DNA of 63,261 nt from Albidovulum sp. (lineage in GTDB: Bacteria; Pseudomonadota; Alphaproteobacteria; Rhodobacterales; Rhodobacteraceae), in contig WFVA01000006.1 in NCBI GenBank assembly GCA_015491895.1, forward strand, positions 1 through 63,261, written 5' to 3'. A program made the position numbers and the translations under genes. Positions 15,980 to 25,250 of the stretch are shown here, piece by piece. Under the pieces are notes generated by a model that did no database searches, was not told the DNA's origin, and saw only the letters and a list, made by a program, of their open reading frames with translations. The stretch's first letter is position 1. The number at the start of each line of letters is the position of its first letter.

Positions 15980-17062
15980 TCAGAATATCATGTTGAACAG
16001 GAAACCGACGAGCAGGATAGCGGTGCCGACAACCCCGACAAAGGTGAGTATCAGCCTGGTTTTGAGCACCTTGCGCAGGATCAGCATTTCCGGCAGCGAA
16101 AGCGCGATCACGCTCATCATGAAGGCGAGCACCGTGCCAAGCGCCGCACCCTTGGCCAGCAGGGCCTCGACAACCGGGATCATGCCGGCTCCATTGGAAT
16201 ACATCGGGATGCCGAGCGCAACAGCGGCGGGAACCGACCACCAGGCATCCTTGCCCATGAGCTGCACCAGGGTTTCCTGAGGCACATAACCATGAATGAA
16301 GGCGCCGAGCGAGATTCCGACAAGGATCCAGATCCAGACCTTGCCCACGATCTCGCGGACCGATTCCAGCCCCTGGCGATAACGATCCACCATGGTGATG
16401 TTTTCATCATGCGCAGCGGGCATGGCCGCGCCGGTATGGATCTCGCGCACCCAGTCCTGAAGCCAGCCCTCCAGATGCAGACGTCCGATCACGATCCCGG
16501 CGAAAATGGCGATCAACAGGCCGAATACGAGATAGATCATCGCCACCTTCCAGCCGACCAGTCCCCAGAGCAGGAACACGGCGACCTCATTTACCATCGG
16601 GGCCGCGATCAGGAATGAAAATGTCACCCCGAGCGGCACGCCGGCGGAAATGAAACCGATGAAGAGCGGAATCGCCGAGCAGGAGCAGAACGGCGTCAGG
16701 ATCCCCAGAAGCGCCGCCATCACATTGCCCACGCCCTCCCGCTTGCCCGAAAGCAGCGCCCGCGTCTTTTCGGGCGAGAAGAAGCTGCGCACCACCCCCA
16801 TCACGAAAACGATGAGCGAGAGCAGCATCAGGATCTTGGGCACGTCGTAGAGGAAGAAGGCCACCGCATCGCCGAGGTGGCTGTCACGCTCGATCGGCAG
16901 AAGCGATGTGAGCCATTCCGAAAGCGCCGGCAACTGCCGGTAAATCAGGAACCAGAGCACCAGCCCGCCAATAACGGCGGTATGCCACAACCAGGCCGGT
17001 TTGTCCGATTTCGGGGCGGGGGCGGCTACGATCTTGCAGCTTTCGCCGGTTGTATCTGTCAT
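15980..17062 (-). CDS. Permease of the ArsP/DUF318 family
   Basis: The 360-residue protein has about eight to ten hydrophobic segments and the family hallmarks: a first FLYDVPKILMLLSLIVFVMGV region, LLGILTPFCSCSAIPLFIGFI with the paired cysteines (~residues 130-150), and SNGAGMIPVVEALLAKGAALGT in the second repeat. ArsP relatives export trivalent organoarsenicals; other members have unproven substrates. The ATG at 17062 overlaps the arsR stop in ATGA, and the mini-thioredoxin follows, so the three genes form one operon under ArsR control. A long central loop (~195-225) holds HDE-rich residues. Substrate assignment to arsenic is inference. Confidence 0.85.
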   Translation of the reverse strand: MTDTTGESCKIVAAPAPKSDKPAWLWHTAVIGGLVLWFLIYRQLPALSEWLTSLLPIERDSHLGDAVAFFLYDVPKILMLLSLIVFVMGVVRSFFSPEKTRALLSGKREGVGNVMAALLGILTPFCSCSAIPLFIGFISAGVPLGVTFSFLIAAPMVNEVAVFLLWGLVGWKVAMIYLVFGLLIAIFAGIVIGRLHLEGWLQDWVREIHTGAAMPAAHDENITMVDRYRQGLESVREIVGKVWIWILVGISLGAFIHGYVPQETLVQLMGKDAWWSVPAAVALGIPMYSNGAGMIPVVEALLAKGAALGTVLAFMMSVIALSLPEMLILRKVLKTRLILTFVGVVGTAILLVGFLFNMIF

Positions 17063-17349
17063 GCTGCTTTCCTTTGTTCCTTTGCCGCCAGTCTGACGGC
17101 TGCTTCCACAAGGGCTTCGATCTCTGCCGGCATGTCGGGATTGCGGCGGTAGCGCACCCATTGCGCATCACGCCGGTCCCTCACCAGCCCGGCCTGTTTC
17201 AGGACCTGCATATGGCGCGACATGCGAGACTGGGTCGCATCAAGCCTTTCCATCAGTTCGCAAACGCAATATTCCCGGCCGTCCCACAGCAAGGTCATCA
17301 CTGCGAGGCGGGTAGGTTCAGCCAGAGCCTGCAAGGTTTCAAGCGCCAT
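17059..17349 (-). CDS. ArsR family metalloregulator
   Basis: This 96-residue winged-helix protein reads MALETLQALAEPTRLAVMTLL at the start, then YCVCELMERLDATQSRMSRHMQVLKQAGLVRDRRDAQWVRYR. The CVC within the recognition-helix-proximal segment matches the ELCVC-like arsenic-sensing motif of classic ArsR proteins, which release DNA upon thiolate binding of As(III)/Sb(III). The start at 17349 gives the standard N-terminus. It is the first gene of the operon; repeated ATATGCG-type motifs between 17363 and 17400 are likely its operators. Confidence 0.92.
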   Translation of the reverse strand: MALETLQALAEPTRLAVMTLLWDGREYCVCELMERLDATQSRMSRHMQVLKQAGLVRDRRDAQWVRYRRNPDMPAEIEALVEAAVRLAAKEQRKAA

Positions 17350-17362
17350 GTTTGAGCCTTTC

Positions 17363-17415
17363 CGCATATGCGTTACACCACATATGCGCCTATGCGCATA
17401 CGCTACCGAGGTCAA
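17363..17415 (-). promoter_or_regulatory. Promoter/operator region of the arsR operon
   Basis: On the minus strand a -35 TTGACC (17415-17410) is followed 17 bases later by TAGGCG (17392-17387) as a weak -10. Three related motifs overlap or follow the -10: TATGCGCATA (17391-17400), CATATGCG (17381-17388) and the palindrome CGCATATGCG (17363-17372). This arrangement fits autorepression by ArsR blocking RNA polymerase. Confidence 0.6.
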
Positions 17416-17425
17416 GAACCCCTGA

Positions 17426-17470
17426 CGAAAAAGCGAGAAAAAGCCGTGCGGCCCGGGCCGCACGGCTTTC
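17426..17470 (-). terminator. Intrinsic terminator of rpmI-rplT
   Basis: A perfect 30-base palindrome (17440-17469; half-site AAAGCCGTGCGGCCC) is followed on the minus strand by T-runs (AAAAA on the plus strand near 17438 and 17428). It lies 24 bases after the rplT stop. The hairpin also separates rplT from the arsR promoter. Confidence 0.85.
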
Positions 17471-20045: not shown

Positions 20046-20786
20046 ATGACATACCACCCCTATCACATTTTCGGCGAGGATCGCCCGGCGCGCTGGCTCA
20101 TCACCTGCGATCACGCCACCAATTTCGTGCCCGATTTCGTCAACGGCGGAGATCTGGGCCTCCCTTCGGAAGACATGGAGCGCCACATCGCCTATGATGT
20201 GGGCGCGGCCGGGGTGAGCCTGGCGCTTGGCGAGCTTCTCGATGCGCCGGTGATCCTCTCCAATTTTTCCCGCCTCGTGATCGATCCGAACCGTGGCGAG
20301 GATGATCCCACACTCCTGATGAAGATCTACGATGGCTCGATCATCCCCGCCAATCGCCTTGCCGGGCCGGAGGAGCTGGAGAAGCGCCTCACCCGCTGCT
20401 ACCGCCCCTATCACGAGGCGCTCGCCCGCCTCGCCGCACGGCGCGATGATACGATCTACGTGGCCGTTCACAGCTTCACGCCGCGCCTCAACGGCCACGG
20501 CATCCGCCCCTGGCACATCGGCATCCTGCACGCAGACGACACCCGCCTCGCCGCGCCACTGCTGGCGCGCCTGCGCGAAGAACCCGATCTCTGCGTCGGC
20601 GAAAACGAGCCCTACGGCGGCCACCTCCCGGGCGACAGCGTGGATCGCCACGCCCTGCAGAAAGGCCGCCCCAATGCGCTGATCGAGCTCAGAAACGATC
20701 TGATCCGCACCGAAGAGCAGCAGAAGGAATGGGCCGAACGCCTGGCCCCCATCCTCACCGAAGTGCTGGAAAGCACCGGCATCTGA
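20046..20786 (+). CDS. N-formylglutamate amidohydrolase family protein
   Basis: This 246-residue protein reads MTYHPYHIFGEDRPARWLITCDHATNFVP, with the conserved CDHA(T/S)N near the start. It continues with HIAYDVGAAGVSLALGELLDAPVILSNFSRLVIDPNRG, VAVHSFTPRLNG and the ENEPYGG motif. These fit the FGase superfamily (zinc-type amidohydrolases of the HutG type); here it belongs to the shorter subgroup whose substrate is not established and is not with hut genes. It is followed by a DUF1244 gene 14 bases downstream, likely an operon. The start at 20046 is chosen over 19995 because the family begins near this Met. Confidence 0.85.
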   Translation: MTYHPYHIFGEDRPARWLITCDHATNFVPDFVNGGDLGLPSEDMERHIAYDVGAAGVSLALGELLDAPVILSNFSRLVIDPNRGEDDPTLLMKIYDGSIIPANRLAGPEELEKRLTRCYRPYHEALARLAARRDDTIYVAVHSFTPRLNGHGIRPWHIGILHADDTRLAAPLLARLREEPDLCVGENEPYGGHLPGDSVDRHALQKGRPNALIELRNDLIRTEEQQKEWAERLAPILTEVLESTGI

Positions 20787-20800
20787 AGAAAGGAAACAAG

Positions 20801-21118
20801 ATGGACGAACAGACCCGCATCGAGATCGAGGCCGCCGCCTTCCGCCGGCTCAGAAAGCACCTGATGGAAGATCGCCTCGATGTGCAGAACATCGACATGA
20901 TGAACCTCGCCGGCTTCTGCCGCAACTGCCTTTCGCGCTGGTATCAGGAGGCGGCAGCCGAACGCGGCATCGAGCTTACGAAAGCCGAGGCCCGCGAAAT
21001 CTACTACGGCATGCCCTACGACGAATGGAAAGCGAAATACCAGAAGGAAGCCAGCCCCGAGAAGCAGGAAGCCTTCCGGAAGGCCTTTGCTGAGAATGTC
21101 GGCAAGGAAGAGGGCTGA
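20801..21118 (+). CDS. DUF1244 domain-containing protein
   Basis: The 105-residue protein matches DUF1244: EAAAFRRLRKHLMEDRLDVQNIDMMNLAGFCRNCLSRWY, with the paired cysteines in FCRNCLSRW (~residues 45-53), and EAREIYYGMPYDEWKAKYQ. The family is small, alpha-helical and widespread in Proteobacteria without known function. AAAGGAAACAAG precedes the ATG. It follows the N-formylglutamate amidohydrolase gene closely. The first 12 residues beyond MDEQTRIEIEA are typical, so the start is secure. Confidence 0.9.
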   Translation: MDEQTRIEIEAAAFRRLRKHLMEDRLDVQNIDMMNLAGFCRNCLSRWYQEAAAERGIELTKAEAREIYYGMPYDEWKAKYQKEASPEKQEAFRKAFAENVGKEEG

Positions 21119-21136: not shown

Positions 21137-22000
21137 TCAGACCGCCGCCTTCCGGCTTTCCTCCAGATAGATCTCGCGCAGCCGCTTCGCCACAGGCCCG
21201 GGCTTGCCGTTTCCAAGCTGCACGCCATCTATTTCCACCACTGGCATCACGAAGGTGCTGGCCGAGGTGATGAAGGCCTCGTCTGCGCTCTGTGCCTCCT
21301 TGATGGTGAAGGGGCGCTCCTCCACCTCCATCTGCGCCTCGCGGGCAAAGCGCAGCACGGCGGCACGGGTGATGCCGTGCAGGATGTCATTCGAAAGCTC
21401 CCGGGTGATGATCTTGCCGCCCTTCACGATATAGGCATTGTTGGAGGTGCCCTCCGTCACCTTGCCATTCTCCACCAGCCAGGCATCATCCGCACCCGCC
21501 GCCTTGGCCATCATCTTGCCCATCGAGGGATAAAGCAGCTGGACCGTCTTGATATCGCGCCGGTGCCAGCGAAGATCGGGAATGGAGATGACCTTGATGC
21601 CCATCCGTGCTACCGGGCTTTCGGCAAGGCCGGGCTTGTTCTGGGTGAAAAGCACGATCGTGGGCGGGGTTTCGGCCGGATCGGGAAACACGAAATCGCG
21701 ATCCGCGGGAGCTCCCCGGGTGATCTGGAGATAGACCAGCCCTTCCTCGATCCCGTTCTTCGCCACCAGCTCCCGGTGGATCTCCAGAAGCTCATCCATG
21801 CTGACGGGGCTTTGCATGCCGAGCTCATCGAGCGATCGCTGGAGCCGCTTCGCATGGCCCTCGAAATCGATCAGCCTGCCATCCAGAACGCTTGTTACCT
21901 CATAGACGCCATCCGCCATCAGGAAGCCGCGATCGAAGATGGAGATCTTCGCCTCTTCCTCGGCCATGTATTCGCCATTCACGTAAACGGTTCTGCTCAT
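21137..22000 (-). CDS. dat: D-amino acid transaminase (fold type IV PLP enzyme)
   Basis: The protein has 287 residues. Family motifs: YVNGEYMAEEEAKISIFDRGFLMADGVYEV at the start, LVYLQITRGAPADRDFVFP, the PLP lysine region DLRWHRRDIKTVQLL (Lys ~residue 144), and EGTSNNAYIV. The YLQxTRGxAxR pattern is typical of D-amino acid transaminases rather than branched-chain ones. These enzymes interconvert D-alanine/2-oxoglutarate and D-glutamate/pyruvate. It follows the dgcA-like gene by 10 bases with AGGAGA upstream, so it belongs to a D-glutamate-type operon, which supports the D-amino acid assignment. Confidence 0.88.
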   Translation of the reverse strand: MSRTVYVNGEYMAEEEAKISIFDRGFLMADGVYEVTSVLDGRLIDFEGHAKRLQRSLDELGMQSPVSMDELLEIHRELVAKNGIEEGLVYLQITRGAPADRDFVFPDPAETPPTIVLFTQNKPGLAESPVARMGIKVISIPDLRWHRRDIKTVQLLYPSMGKMMAKAAGADDAWLVENGKVTEGTSNNAYIVKGGKIITRELSNDILHGITRAAVLRFAREAQMEVEERPFTIKEAQSADEAFITSASTFVMPVVEIDGVQLGNGKPGPVAKRLREIYLEESRKAAV

Positions 22001-22010
22001 CCGGTCTCTC

Positions 22011-22976
22011 CTAGCCCCAAAGCCGCGCAGCTGGCGGATGCACGCCGGCATCATCATATCTCAGGGGCTCTTCGCGATCCTCCGCCAGAAGAAGCGGCCC
22101 GTCGAGATCAGTATAGGCAGCGCCCTGCGCGATCAAGGTGGCTGGCGCCATCGCAAGCGAAGAGCCGACCATGCAACCCACCATGATGCCGAAACCCGCC
22201 GCTTCCGCCGCGCGCCTCAGCGCGATCGCTTCCGTCAGCCCGCCCGTCTTGTCGAGCTTGATGTTGACGAGATCATACTTGCCGGAAAGCCCCGCAAGGC
22301 TCGCGCGGTCATGGCAGGATTCATCCGCGCAGACGGGCACAGGGCGCTCAAGCCCCCGCAGGGCGTCATCCGCACCCGCCGGAAGCGGCTGCTCCACCAT
22401 CCGCACCCCGAGGCGCGCCAGATGCGGGGCAAGATCGGCATAGATCTCCGCGCTCCAGCCCTCATTGGCATCCACGATGATCGCCGAATCCGGCGCCCCG
22501 GCCCGCACCGCTTCGAGGCGGGGCATGTCATCCGCCGTGCCGAGCTTGATCTTCAGCAGCGGGCGATGGGCATTGCGCGCCGCCTGCTCGCGCATGGCCT
22601 CCGGCGTATCCAGCGAAAGCGTGAAAGCCGTGATCACCGGGCCGGGTTCGGGCAGGCCGGCCAGTTCCCACACCCGCCGCCCGGCGCGTTTCGCCTCCAG
22701 ATCCCACAGCGCGCAATCCACGGCATTGCGCGCCGCTCCCGGCGGCAGCGCCTCCTGCAGCTCTTCGCGCGTGATCCCCCCGGGCAAACCCGAAATCGCC
22801 GCCTCCACGCTCTCCAGCGTTTCGCCATAGCGCGCATAGGGCACGCATTCGCCCCACCCCTCATGCCCGCCATCGCGCAGCCGCACCGTCAGCACCCGCG
22901 CCTCGCTGCGGCTGCCGCGCGAGATGGTGAACACCCGCGCCAGACGAAACACGTCACGCCTTACCGAAATCTCCAT
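22011..22976 (-). CDS. dgcA: N-acetyl-D-glutamate racemase DgcA-like / dipeptide epimerase (enolase superfamily)
   Basis: This 321-residue mandelate-racemase-type enzyme has both catalytic lysine sites, LLKIKLG (~residue 148-150) and NIKLDKTGG (~245). The metal ligands are in VDANEGW, EQPL and CADES. That set fits Ala-Glu dipeptide epimerases and DgcA. The gene next door encodes a DUF1611 protein (DgcN). In marine bacteria the DgcN-DgcA pair converts D-Glu to N-acetyl-D-Glu and then N-acetyl-L-Glu, so DgcA is the favoured reading here. The start at 22976 (MEISVRRDVFRLARVF) follows a copy of the dispersed repeat; the frame continues upstream through the repeat but is not coding. Confidence 0.8.
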   Translation of the reverse strand: MEISVRRDVFRLARVFTISRGSRSEARVLTVRLRDGGHEGWGECVPYARYGETLESVEAAISGLPGGITREELQEALPPGAARNAVDCALWDLEAKRAGRRVWELAGLPEPGPVITAFTLSLDTPEAMREQAARNAHRPLLKIKLGTADDMPRLEAVRAGAPDSAIIVDANEGWSAEIYADLAPHLARLGVRMVEQPLPAGADDALRGLERPVPVCADESCHDRASLAGLSGKYDLVNIKLDKTGGLTEAIALRRAAEAAGFGIMVGCMVGSSLAMAPATLIAQGAAYTDLDGPLLLAEDREEPLRYDDAGVHPPAARLWG

Positions 22977-22985
22977 GCCATGCAC

Positions 22986-23025
22986 CTCATCACTGGTCGG
23001 CAAATATCCCCGCCGGAGGCATCCG
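22986..23025 (-). repeat. Dispersed intergenic repeat, copy 2
   Basis: Inverted copy of the element also at 5300 and 26995: GCCTCCGGCGGGGATATTTG, three bases, GACCAGTGAT on the minus strand. It fills the 73-base space between the dgcN and dgcA genes, in sense with both, ten bases before the dgcA start. Confidence 0.85.
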
Positions 23026-23049
23026 GCAGCAGCCACGTTCTCGATGGTC

Positions 23050-24057
23050 TCAGATCGCGAGCAGCGCGTCCACCAGCCGCCCTGCCCCCTGCCGGAAGGG
23101 ATCGACAGCCGGCAGCCCCATACGCCTTTCCACCTCTCCAAGATAAGCGAGCGCCTCATCCTCGCCCATGTGCTGGGTATTCACCGAAATGCCCGCCACG
23201 GCGCAATCGGGATTGGCCACCCGGGCAATCGGCAGCGCCAGATCGCGCAGCGCCTCGAGAGAGGGCAGAGCGTAATCGGGCAGCCCGCGCATATGGGTGC
23301 GGGTCGGCTCGTGGCACAGGATCAGCGCATCGGGCTGTCCGCCATGGATGAGCGCCATCGTCACCCCGGAATAGGAAAGGTGAAAGAGGCTTCCCTGCCC
23401 CTCGATGTGATCCCAGTGATCGGGGTCGCTATCAGGCGTCAGCTGTTCCACGGCCCCGGCCATGAAATCGGCCACCACCGCATCGAGCGGCACGCCGGAA
23501 CCTGTGATCAGGATCCCCGTCTGCCCGGTGGCGCGGAAGCTGGATTTCAGCCCCCGCCGCTTCATCTCGCGATCCATCGCCAGGGCCGTGTACATCTTGC
23601 CCACCGAGCAATCCGTGCCCAGCGCCAGGCACCGCCGGCCGCTGCGCTTCCTGCCATTGGCGATCGGATAATCCTCTTCGGGCACGCGCACGTCATGCAG
23701 CTGCACGCCTGCTTCCCTCGCCGCAGCAACGAGATCGGGCTCGTCGCGCAGGAGATTGTGCAGGCCGCTCGCGATGTCATACCCCAGGGCGATCGCCTCG
23801 CGCATCACGCCTTTCCAGGCCTGCGAGATCACGCCGCCGCGATTGGCAACGCCGATCACCAGGGTCTGCGCCCCGGCCCTGCGGCCTTCGGCAAGGCTCA
23901 TGTCCGGCAGGCCCACATCGGCGCCGCAGCCATCCATCCGGTATTGACCAACCACATTTTCCGGCCGCCAGTCACGAATGCCCTGGGCAACCTTTGCCGC
24001 CAGCTGATCCGGCGCATCCCCCAGAAAGAGCAGATAAGGCCTCTTGATCTCCGACAT
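23050..24057 (-). CDS. dgcN: DUF1611 family N-acetyltransferase DgcN-like
   Basis: The 335-residue protein has the DUF1611 two-domain form. The N-domain contains RPYLLFLGDAPDQLAAKVAQGI and VIGVANRGGVISQAW. The C-domain carries a P-loop-like ALGTDCSVGKMYTALAMDREM (~residues 192-212), TGQTGILITGSGVPLDAVVADF and LCHEPTRTHMRGL. DgcN of marine bacteria acetylates D-glutamate ahead of the DgcA racemase; the adjacent dgcA-like gene makes that the likely role. Start: ATG at 24057 with a GGGGGGTG stretch upstream, or GTG six bases earlier. It is first in the operon and divergent from mcl1. Confidence 0.85.
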   Translation of the reverse strand: MSEIKRPYLLFLGDAPDQLAAKVAQGIRDWRPENVVGQYRMDGCGADVGLPDMSLAEGRRAGAQTLVIGVANRGGVISQAWKGVMREAIALGYDIASGLHNLLRDEPDLVAAAREAGVQLHDVRVPEEDYPIANGRKRSGRRCLALGTDCSVGKMYTALAMDREMKRRGLKSSFRATGQTGILITGSGVPLDAVVADFMAGAVEQLTPDSDPDHWDHIEGQGSLFHLSYSGVTMALIHGGQPDALILCHEPTRTHMRGLPDYALPSLEALRDLALPIARVANPDCAVAGISVNTQHMGEDEALAYLGEVERRMGLPAVDPFRQGAGRLVDALLAI

Positions 24058-24293: not shown

Positions 24294-25250
24294 ATGAGCT
24301 TTCGCATCCAGCCAAGCCCCCCTGCCCGCCCCAACCGCTGCCAGCTGTTCGGCCCCGGCTCACGCCCGGCGATCTTCGAGAAGATGGCGAAAAGCGAGGC
24401 GGACGTGATCAACCTCGATCTTGAAGACAGCGTCGCCCCCGACGACAAGGAAAGCGCCCGCAGCAACGTGATCGAGGCGATCAGCGATATCGACTGGGGC
24501 AACAAGTATCTCAGCGTGCGGATCAACGGGCTCGATACGCCATATTGGTATCGCGATGTGGTGGATCTCCTCGAAAACGCCTCCGAACGGCTCGATCAGA
24601 TCATGATCCCGAAAGTGGGCAATGCCTCCGATATCTATGCAGTGGATGCGCTCGTGAGCGCGATCGAGGCCGCGAAAGGGCGCAACAAGAGGATCAGCCT
24701 TGAGGTGATCATCGAAAGCGCCGCCGGCATTTCCCATGTGGAGGAAATCGCCGCCGCCAGCCCCCGCCTGCAGGCAATGAGCCTCGGCGCCGCCGATTAC
24801 GCGGCTTCGATGGGCATGCAGACAACCGGCATCGGCGGCACCCAGGAAAACTACTACATGCTCCATGACGGCAAAAAATACTGGGGCGATCCCTGGCATT
24901 GGGCGCAGGCCGCGATCGTTGCCGCCTGCCGCACGCATGGCGTGCTGCCGATCGATGGCCCCTTCGGCGATTTTTCGGATGACGAGGGCTACATCGCACA
25001 GGCGCGCCGTTCGGCTACCCTCGGCATGGTCGGCAAATGGGCGATCCATCCCAAACAGATCGCGCTGGCCAATCAGGTGTTCACCCCCTCCGAGGAGCAG
25101 GTGAAGGAAGCGCGCGAGATCCTGAAGGCCATGGCGGAGGCCAAGGCGCGGGGGGAGGGCGCCACCGTCTACAAGGGCCGGCTGGTGGATATAGCCAGCA
25201 TCAAGCAGGCCGAGGTGATCGTGCGTCAGGCGGAAATGATCGATGGCTGA
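24294..25250 (+). CDS. mcl1: L-malyl-CoA/beta-methylmalyl-CoA lyase
   Basis: The 318-residue HpcH/HpaI-type lyase begins MSFRIQPSPPARPNRCQLFGPGSRPAIFEKM, nearly the Rhodobacter Mcl1 N-terminus. It contains ADVINLDLEDSVAPDDKE (metal-binding Glu/Asp region), EVIIESAAGISHVEEIAAAS and SLGAADYAASMGMQTTGIGG. Mcl1 cleaves L-malyl-CoA or beta-methylmalyl-CoA to glyoxylate plus acetyl- or propionyl-CoA, used in the ethylmalonyl-CoA pathway and 3-hydroxypropionate-type routes. The start is set by homology; the frame remains open upstream. Its stop overlaps the next gene by eight bases. Confidence 0.93.
   Translation: MSFRIQPSPPARPNRCQLFGPGSRPAIFEKMAKSEADVINLDLEDSVAPDDKESARSNVIEAISDIDWGNKYLSVRINGLDTPYWYRDVVDLLENASERLDQIMIPKVGNASDIYAVDALVSAIEAAKGRNKRISLEVIIESAAGISHVEEIAAASPRLQAMSLGAADYAASMGMQTTGIGGTQENYYMLHDGKKYWGDPWHWAQAAIVAACRTHGVLPIDGPFGDFSDDEGYIAQARRSATLGMVGKWAIHPKQIALANQVFTPSEEQVKEAREILKAMAEAKARGEGATVYKGRLVDIASIKQAEVIVRQAEMIDG

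What the first reader, a model, noticed from the sequence alone, without database searches (positions are those of the whole stretch)
21137..24057. A dgcN-dgcA-D-amino acid transaminase operon: a possible route from D-amino acids to L-glutamate
DUF1611 (DgcN) and the enolase-superfamily DgcA are the known pair that acetylates and racemises D-glutamate in marine bacteria. Here a D-amino acid transaminase follows ten bases later. Together they could collect amino groups from D-alanine and other D-amino acids as D-Glu and convert them via N-acetyl-L-Glu to L-Glu, feeding arginine or general nitrogen metabolism. The three-gene linkage makes a testable pathway for peptidoglycan-derived D-amino acids.
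Basis: partly seen in the sequence, partly recalled or inferred. Interest (0 to 1): 0.6.

Follow-up and report, generated by a model that had tools for sequence, protein, structure and literature searches.

The report
Three-gene D-amino acid salvage operon
Three neighbouring genes in this bacterium probably gather nitrogen from mirror-image (D-) amino acids, such as those of cell walls, and turn it into ordinary L-glutamate; the enzymes are of known kinds, but their joining in one conserved gene set with an unusual transaminase is a useful new lead.

Summary
On the minus strand lie dgcN (24057-23050), dgcA (22976-22011) and a class-IV transaminase, dat (22000-21137), starting 10 bases after dgcA. 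DgcN and DgcA pass their NCBIfam equivalog cut-offs; Dat passes a 'D-amino-acid transaminase' subfamily cut-off but not the stricter equivalog.

The triple is the commonest arrangement among the window's nearest relatives (Rhodobacterales): of 80 named Dat loci, 50 are dgcN-dgcA-dat and 18 more have 0.6-2.2 kb between dgcA and dat. It also occurs in genomes of other families, two in other classes, consistent with transfer as a unit. One relative adds an alanine racemase gene, one an amino-acid transporter. All 107 dgcA-linked Dats read have Arg-x-Phe where classical enzymes have Arg-x-His; 16 of 20 hand-picked unlinked Dats have His.

Best reading: Dat collects amino groups as D-Glu; DgcN and DgcA pull D-Glu irreversibly to N-acetyl-L-Glu. 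Substrates and direction are inferred. Against a strict pathway: two genomes rated 100% complete keep dgcA-dat with no dgcN match, and two more keep dat with neither dgcN nor a dgcA over cut-off. Known enzymes, new operon-level variant.

The parts
23050..24057 (-). dgcN: DUF1611-family, predicted D-glutamate N-acetyltransferase
   Evidence: NF041892 548.5 bits, cut-off 480; PF07755 and PF17396; best PDB match 7xrj_A, 571 bits over 332 residues
22011..22976 (-). dgcA: enolase superfamily, predicted N-acetyl-D-glutamate racemase, a close relative of L-Ala-D/L-Glu epimerase
   Evidence: NF042940 511.7 bits, cut-off 400; L-Ala-D/L-Glu epimerase model NF011708 321.2 bits, below its cut-off of 343; Lys, Asp and Glu motifs kept in the alignment (their catalytic role is recalled)
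21137..22000 (-). dat: fold-type IV PLP transaminase, D-amino-acid-transaminase subfamily, with Arg-x-Phe in the O-pocket loop
   Evidence: NF005209 383.3 bits, cut-off 320; TIGR01121 241.1 bits, below 277.45; best PDB matches are D-alanine aminotransferases; motif
20046..20786 (+). FGase-family (PF05013) gene convergent with dat; neighbour, probably not part of the unit
   Evidence: PF05013 142.4 bits for 20049-20783; a match lies near dat in 37 of 80 named loci
20801..21118 (+). DUF1244 gene convergent with dat; neighbour, probably not part of the unit
   Evidence: PF06844 128 bits; a match lies near dat in 49 of 80 named loci
24294..25250 (+). CitE/HpcH-HpaI-like lyase gene, divergent from dgcN; neighbour
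   Evidence: PF03328 145.1 bits; a match lies near dgc in 60 of 80 named loci

Best explanation
The operon is a D-amino-acid funnel. Dat moves the amino group of D-Ala (and other D-amino acids) to 2-oxoglutarate, giving pyruvate (or another 2-oxo acid) and D-Glu. DgcN acetylates D-Glu with acetyl-CoA, an effectively irreversible step that pulls the near-equilibrium Dat reaction. DgcA racemises N-acetyl-D-Glu to N-acetyl-L-Glu, which a deacetylase (an ArgE-like protein coded elsewhere in the genome is a candidate) hydrolyses to L-Glu, or which enters the arginine cycle directly. The set also takes D-Glu itself. Shown here: gene identity at family level, gene order and spacing, conservation, signs of joint transfer, presence of murI, alr, argJ and an argE-like gene in the genome. 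Inferred: transcription as one unit, all substrates, direction of flow, the deacetylation step.
For: Family assignments. Triple in 50 of 80 nearest named Dat loci (dgcA-dat gap under 400 bases), with 18 more having 0.6-2.2 kb between dgcA and dat. In a second sample of the window's family, 19 of 20 dgcN loci have dat downstream on the same strand. Three genomes outside the family (G572 and G432 of other classes, G065 of another family) carry the triple with a DgcN inside or just beside the window family's group, as transfer of a unit would give. G257 has an Lrp-type regulator gene, dgcN-dgcA-dat, then that genome's only alanine racemase over cut-off. G262 has dgcN, dgcA, amino-acid ABC transporter genes and dat in one same-strand run, and G164 a similar set. 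The Arg-x-Phe Dat group that scores next to the linked ones co-occurs with dgcN: 8 of 12 genomes against 57 of 269 outside the group, Fisher p 0.0013 (the cut was set after seeing the scores, and relatedness is ignored). MurI and Alr are over cut-off in the window's genome, so Dat is not needed to make D-Glu or D-Ala for the wall. ArgJ and an ArgE-like protein are both present. A Rhodobacteraceae isolate with annotated DAAT, DgcN and DgcA grows on D-Ala, D-Glu, D-Ser, D-Phe and D-Lys, and on peptidoglycan (PMC11747546, passages).
Against: G154 and G583, rated 100% complete, have dgcA-dat and no DgcN match; six named loci show dgcA-dat with no dgcN in the stretch held (the rest of those genomes was not searched, and L113 holds 747 masked or unknown bases). 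Pairwise dN/dS of their DgcA against dgcN-bearing neighbours is 0.06-0.33 where dS is finite, so DgcA is probably still in use there, though part of that divergence may predate the loss. G444 and G602 keep a strong Dat with neither DgcN nor a DgcA over cut-off. So Dat and DgcA seem to have a role that does not need DgcN. Most dgcNA loci outside the family show no dat: none in 65 of the 72 class loci (in 13 of the 131 loci of the tree fewer than 3 kb remain behind dgcA), none in 20 further class loci, none in 17 of 19 loci from other classes. G185 has a window-family-type DgcN at a contig end but no linked-type Dat elsewhere in its genome; L299 shows no dat in the 539 bases left behind dgcA. 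In about 6 of the 18 loci with an insert the likely inserted gene lies on the other strand (by eye), so co-transcription is unlikely there. 12 of the 16 unlinked Arg-x-His Dats come from genomes that have dgcN, so the classical form is common in dgcN genomes too. The linked Dat lacks His100 and, in the window, Lys35 and Phe26 of the classical enzyme and misses the TIGR01121 cut-off. In Nautella, a marine alphaproteobacterium that degrades many D-amino acids, the authors ascribe the activity to deaminases, not transaminases (PMC4836201, passages).
Confidence: 0.5

Rival explanations
1. D-Glu/D-Ala pool control. Dat equilibrates D-Glu with D-Ala according to need, and DgcN-DgcA is a separate overflow exit for D-Glu. 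The genes share regulation, not a one-way route.
For: dat is kept in family genomes without detected dgcN and dgcA; transaminase reactions are reversible (general knowledge); MurI and Alr are present, so D-Glu and D-Ala can also be made and removed by racemases.
Against: In G262 the genes sit in one run with amino-acid uptake genes, which points to catabolism.
Confidence: 0.22
2. Murein-peptide recycling. DgcA also, or mainly, epimerises L-Ala-D-Glu to L-Ala-L-Glu, and Dat uses D-Ala released from stem peptides.
For: DgcA resembles L-Ala-D/L-Glu epimerase over nearly its whole length (1jpd, 292 bits); the DLD motif near the C-terminus (its role in dipeptide binding is recalled) keeps both Asp in all 156 DgcAs aligned, dgcN-linked and orphan alike; DgcA is kept in loci without dgcN.
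Against: The DgcA model scores far above its cut-off while the epimerase equivalog model scores below its own; dgcN and dgcA lie together in 70 of 72 class dgcN loci; in some dgcN-less loci DgcA has diverged more than the usual DgcA-Dat difference, L163 most.
Confidence: 0.16
3. The Arg-x-Phe Dat is not an ordinary D-amino-acid:2-oxoglutarate transaminase but has another amino donor or acceptor range, so the operon serves a different compound.
For: His100 to Phe in all 107 dgcA-linked Dats read, against 16 of 20 hand-picked unlinked class Dats with His; positions 26 and 35 in the window protein are not of the classical type either.
Against: Tyr31, Val33, Tyr-x-Gln and Arg98 equivalents are kept; D-amino-acid transaminases without the classical trap are known to work, one best on D-Glu (PMC10003956, passages).
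Confidence: 0.12

Closest known systems
DgcN-DgcA D-glutamate pathway (NF041892, NF042940)
   Same: Same two enzyme families, adjacent in the same order, both over curated cut-offs.
   Different: Here a transaminase gene joins them. The DgcR regulator of the original description (recalled; the paper is not held) was not looked for by name.
Classical D-amino-acid transaminase (Bacillus sp. YM-1, PDB 1daa)
   Same: Fold-type IV homologue with Tyr31, Val33, Tyr-x-Gln and Arg98 equivalents and the Lys of the PLP site (the Lys role is recalled).
   Different: His100 is Phe, Lys35 is Ser, Phe26 is Met in the window protein; below the TIGR01121 cut-off.
L-Ala-D/L-Glu epimerase (PDB 1jpd)
   Same: Homologous over nearly the whole chain; same motifs as far as aligned.
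   Different: Below the NF011708 cut-off; the DgcA model fits much better.

Membership tests
DgcN (NF041892) | Score over curated equivalog cut-off (480 bits) | tested here: met
   548.5 bits over the whole model
DgcN (NF041892) | Acetylates D-Glu with acetyl-CoA | not testable with these tools
   Needs an enzyme assay
DgcA (NF042940) | Score over curated equivalog cut-off (400 bits) | tested here: met
   511.7 bits over the whole model
DgcA (NF042940) | Adjacent to dgcN | tested here: met
   73-base gap, same strand
DgcA (NF042940) | Racemises N-acetyl-D-Glu rather than Ala-Glu dipeptides | tested here: inconclusive
   Motifs including DLD do not separate dgcN-linked from the 7 orphan DgcAs aligned
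Canonical D-amino-acid transaminase | Tyr31 and Val33 of motif 1; Tyr-x-Gln at 88-90 (PMC10003956 Table 2, passages) | tested here: met
   Tyr33, Val35 and Tyr-Leu-Gln in the window protein
Canonical D-amino-acid transaminase | Phe26 and [KRPT]35 of motif 1 (same table) | tested here: not met
   Met28 and Ser37 at these places in the window protein; some linked relatives have Phe at the first
Canonical D-amino-acid transaminase | Arg98-x-His100 of the carboxylate trap | tested here: not met
   Arg-Asp-Phe in the window protein; Arg-x-Phe in all 107 dgcA-linked Dats read
Canonical D-amino-acid transaminase | TIGR01121 equivalog cut-off (277.45 bits) | tested here: not met
   241.1 bits
NF005209 'D-amino-acid transaminase' subfamily | Score over curated cut-off (320 bits) | tested here: met
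   383.3 bits over the whole model
L-Ala-D/L-Glu epimerase (NF011708) | Score over curated equivalog cut-off (343 bits) | tested here: not met
   321.2 bits

The most novel reading that the evidence does not exclude
The Arg-x-Phe Dat is a distinct transaminase isoform tied to DgcN-DgcA, and together they form a general, irreversible, acetyl-CoA-driven 'inverter' that turns the nitrogen of many D-amino acids into L-Glu. It is an old trait of the Rhodobacterales and has been passed as a cassette to other families and classes.
Probability: 0.3. Interest if true: 0.6.

Novelty: new variant of a known kind. Interest (0 to 1): 0.45.

Why it matters
D-amino acids from bacterial walls are a recognised part of slowly degraded marine organic matter (PMC10845958, passages). 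If the operon works as proposed, a widespread group of marine bacteria has a built-in route that funnels D-amino acids through D-Glu into L-Glu, and their use could be predicted from one three-gene marker. It also gives a reason for the energetic cost of DgcN: an irreversible pull on a near-equilibrium transaminase. Named isolates that carry the triple make it testable.

Tried and rejected
Rejected: chance adjacency. Rejected as the main role: Dat as sole supplier of D-Glu or D-Ala for the wall in this genome, since MurI and Alr are both over their cut-offs; MurI was not detected in G065 and G262, where the point stays open. Considered and left open: the convergent FGase-family gene as the missing N-acetyl-Glu deacylase. 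It lies on the other strand; matches lie near dat in 37 of 80 named loci and in none of the 39 non-family loci, although other FGase-family genes (one of six tested by Pfam) lie 2.9-5.3 kb from dgcN, also on the other strand, in 6 class loci. Led nowhere: the DLD motif as a discriminator of dipeptide epimerase from N-acetyl-Glu racemase; a search for such motifs in the plant epimerase paper PMC3605383 (no hits); transposon-fitness literature for Phaeobacter (nothing on D-amino acids in the passages seen). dN/dS values printed as 0.000 are artefacts of saturated dS and were not used. Structure prediction, fold search, Rfam, viral, plasmid, phage and E. coli collections were not used.

Literature. 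The original DgcN-DgcA paper (recalled as ISME J 2023) is not held, so what I say of it is recall. Seen as passages only: PMC11747546, PMC10845958, PMC12363236, PMC10003956, PMC9602339, PMC4836201, PMC5764234. None of the passages seen describes the three genes as one operon; this rests on searches (listings) and passages only.
Full report
What is there. The window (contig C6 of a 2.79 Mb, 166-contig genome, 93.6% complete) carries on its minus strand dgcN (24057-23050), dgcA (22976-22011) and dat (22000-21137), with gaps of 73 and 10 bases. DgcN and DgcA pass the NCBIfam equivalog cut-offs (548.5 over 480; 511.7 over 400). Dat passes the subfamily model NF005209 (383.3 over 320) but not the equivalog TIGR01121 (241.1, cut-off 277.45). 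In the PDB, DgcN is closest to 7xrj (571 bits), DgcA to 4gfi (366 bits) and then to L-Ala-D/L-Glu epimerase 1jpd (292 bits), and Dat to a D-alanine aminotransferase (9pxs, 191 bits).

Host. Of the 80 nearest named Dat loci, NCBI ranks put 76 in Rhodobacterales (39 Roseobacteraceae, 35 Paracoccaceae, 2 without family); 4 carry no rank. The closest, at 97% identity, is titled 'Rhodobacteraceae bacterium isolate 134-614'. The window genome is placed in that group by inference; its handle carries no name. 'Family' below is the tool's family code f1.

How common is the triple? 50 are dgcN-dgcA-dat (dgcA-dat gap under 400 bases), 18 have dgcN-dgcA with 0.6-2.2 kb before dat, 6 have dgcA-dat without dgcN in the stretch, 4 have dgcA-dat cut by a contig end, 2 have dat alone. 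The stretches between dgcA and dat hold several different genes, in about 6 of 18 on the other strand (by eye). In a class sample of 289 genomes, DgcN passes its cut-off in 70, DgcA in 97 and NF005209 in 158. I read all 72 full-length dgcN loci (70 over and 2 just under cut-off, the window included): dgcA lies beside dgcN on the same strand in 70 of 72 (of the other two, L050 lies at a contig end), and dat lies right behind in 5 (window, G022, G252, G065, G257) and about 6 kb further on the same strand in 2 (G164, G262). In a phylum sample of 398, DgcN passes its cut-off in 63. Of 59 further loci fetched, dat follows in 19 of 20 from the window's family (the last, L299, shows none in the 539 bases before its contig end), 0 of 20 other class loci (two of these are second copies in their genomes), and 2 of 19 from other classes.

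One main origin, some transfer. On a DgcN tree of 131 rows, 26 of 28 linked rows fall in one group of 28 (support 82, not starred), whose two unlinked members are L299 and L079; the latter's contig ends 64 bases behind dgcA. The other 2 linked rows (G164, G262) form a separate pair. The label needs 4 changes, against a shuffled mean of 25.5 with 0 of 500 as low; near-copies inflate this. G572, of another class, has its DgcN inside the family's group (100*), whereas two other genomes of its own family (G325, G613) lie elsewhere; G432, also of another class, branches just outside (97*); G065, of another family, lies inside. Transfer of the triple is the simplest reading. Against a smooth picture: G185 (the genome of L079, same genus code as G065) has no linked-type Dat elsewhere in the class search, so it may have lost dat or have it in an assembly gap.

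A distinct transaminase. Canonical D-amino-acid transaminases bind the substrate carboxylate with Tyr31, Arg98 and His100 (PMC10003956, passages and Table 2). The window Dat keeps the Tyr and Arg equivalents but has Phe for His100, Ser for Lys35 and Met for Phe26. Arg-x-Phe is found in 80 of 80 named loci (78 of them dgcA-linked), 8 of 8 linked class loci and 21 of 21 from the phylum sample, so in 107 dgcA-linked Dats; organisms may overlap between samples. Of 20 unlinked class Dats picked by hand, 16 have Arg-x-His, 12 of them in genomes that also have dgcN; of the 4 with Arg-x-Phe, 3 (G107, G189, G267) are in dgcN genomes. In a class search with a profile of linked Dats, the next 12 genomes by score also have Arg-x-Phe, and 8 of these 12 contain dgcN, against 57 of the 269 genomes outside the group (Fisher p 0.0013; cut set after seeing the scores, relatedness ignored). 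Further down, 3 of the next 10 read have Arg-x-Phe too, 2 of them in dgcN genomes. The signature is associated with dgcN, not exclusive to it.

Pathway context. The window genome has MurI (151.6 bits, cut-off 146.65), Alr (226, cut-off 168), ArgJ (402.1, cut-off 298) and an ArgE-like deacetylase (401.7, cut-off 297.7) on other contigs. ArgJ and an ArgE-like protein are over cut-off in 8 of 8 genomes tested; since ArgJ makes ArgE dispensable for arginine synthesis (general knowledge), the ArgE-like protein is a candidate N-acetyl-L-Glu hydrolase (inference). MurI has no match in G065 and G262, both 96% complete. In G257 an Lrp-type regulator faces dgcN-dgcA-dat, and that genome's only alanine racemase over cut-off follows. 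In G262 a same-strand run holds dgcN, dgcA, a LysR-like gene, solute-binding protein, two permeases, an ATPase, an MCP-type protein and dat; the solute-binding and MCP proteins were checked by Pfam, the rest read by eye. G164 looks alike, but there the mechanical ORF choice did not show every gene.

Mechanism (inferred). Dat: D-amino acid plus 2-oxoglutarate gives 2-oxo acid plus D-Glu, near equilibrium. DgcN: D-Glu plus acetyl-CoA gives N-acetyl-D-Glu, practically irreversible. DgcA: N-acetyl-D-Glu to N-acetyl-L-Glu. A deacetylase then gives L-Glu, or the product enters the arginine cycle. PMC12363236 (passages) calls the dgcN route an irreversible racemisation with considerable energetic cost; that cost makes sense as a pull on Dat.

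What does not fit. In the family, Dat looks the most widely kept, then DgcA, then DgcN. Of 27 family genomes listed, 4 have no DgcN match, all rated 100% complete. Two of them (G154, G583) keep dgcA-dat; the other two (G444, G602, one genus) keep a strong Dat without a DgcA over cut-off. Six named loci also show dgcA-dat without dgcN in the stretch held, but the rest of those genomes was not searched, and L113 holds 747 unknown bases. For these 8 loci the pairwise dN/dS of DgcA against dgcN-bearing neighbours is 0.06-0.33 where dS is finite: rough, near saturation, and partly older than the loss of dgcN. In some (L163 most) DgcA has diverged more, relative to Dat, than in dgcN-bearing pairs (mean difference -0.058, s.d. 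0.040). So DgcA probably has a use without DgcN in at least some of them, perhaps as dipeptide epimerase, and Dat has one without either. This weakens the claim that the three always act as one pathway; it leaves open that they do so where all three are present. Also, in Nautella the D-amino-acid degradation was ascribed by its authors to deaminases (PMC4836201, passages).

Literature. Strain LCG007 (Rhodobacteraceae) has annotated D-amino acid transaminase, DgcN and DgcA and grows on several D-amino acids and on peptidoglycan; the passages treat the enzymes separately, the transaminase for D-Phe and D-Lys (PMC11747546). In Shewanella WP2 DgcN-DgcA is proposed as the main D-Glu route (PMC10845958, passages). 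I found no description of the three-gene operon in the searches listed under Tried and rejected; the original DgcN paper could not be read.

Verdict. Observation confirmed; interpretation plausible and strengthened in linkage, unproven in chemistry and direction; a new variant of the known DgcN-DgcA route.

Noticed in passing
12 of the 72 class dgcN loci: L040, L041, L046, L049, L051, L062, L064, L066, L081, L083, L087, L092: A gamma-glutamyltranspeptidase-type gene (PF01019 in the one member tested, L049) lies on the opposite strand upstream of dgcN, often directly divergent. It could release D-Glu from gamma-glutamyl compounds such as wall stem peptides.
   Followed up: partly
L036 12854-14002 (+): In G257 an alanine racemase gene, the genome's only one over cut-off, directly follows dgcN-dgcA-dat.
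   Followed up: yes
L037, L038: dat lies about 6 kb behind dgcN-dgcA on the same strand; in L038 the genes between are amino-acid ABC transporter genes, a LysR-like gene and a methyl-accepting chemotaxis-type gene.
   Followed up: partly
L034, L328; also L113, L140, L146, L163, L180, L184: dgcA-dat without dgcN: genome-wide in the first two (G154, G583), in the stretch held in the other six.
   Followed up: partly
11 class loci, e.g. L044, L047, L086, L090: A hexapeptide-repeat protein gene (PF00132 in the one tested, L090; gamma-carbonic-anhydrase-like by eye) sits directly upstream of dgcN on the same strand.
   Followed up: no
G252:C1:690079-691697: A second, distant DUF1611 gene (170.6 bits to DgcN) sits next to a gene with weak alanine racemase similarity (41.9 bits).
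   Followed up: no
G065 and G262: No MurI match although each carries the linked Dat; Dat might supply D-Glu there. Both genomes are rated 96% complete.
   Followed up: no
window 15980-17463 (-): A permease-like gene preceded by an ArsR-like regulator gene, named by eye from the ORF list; no family search was run.
   Followed up: no
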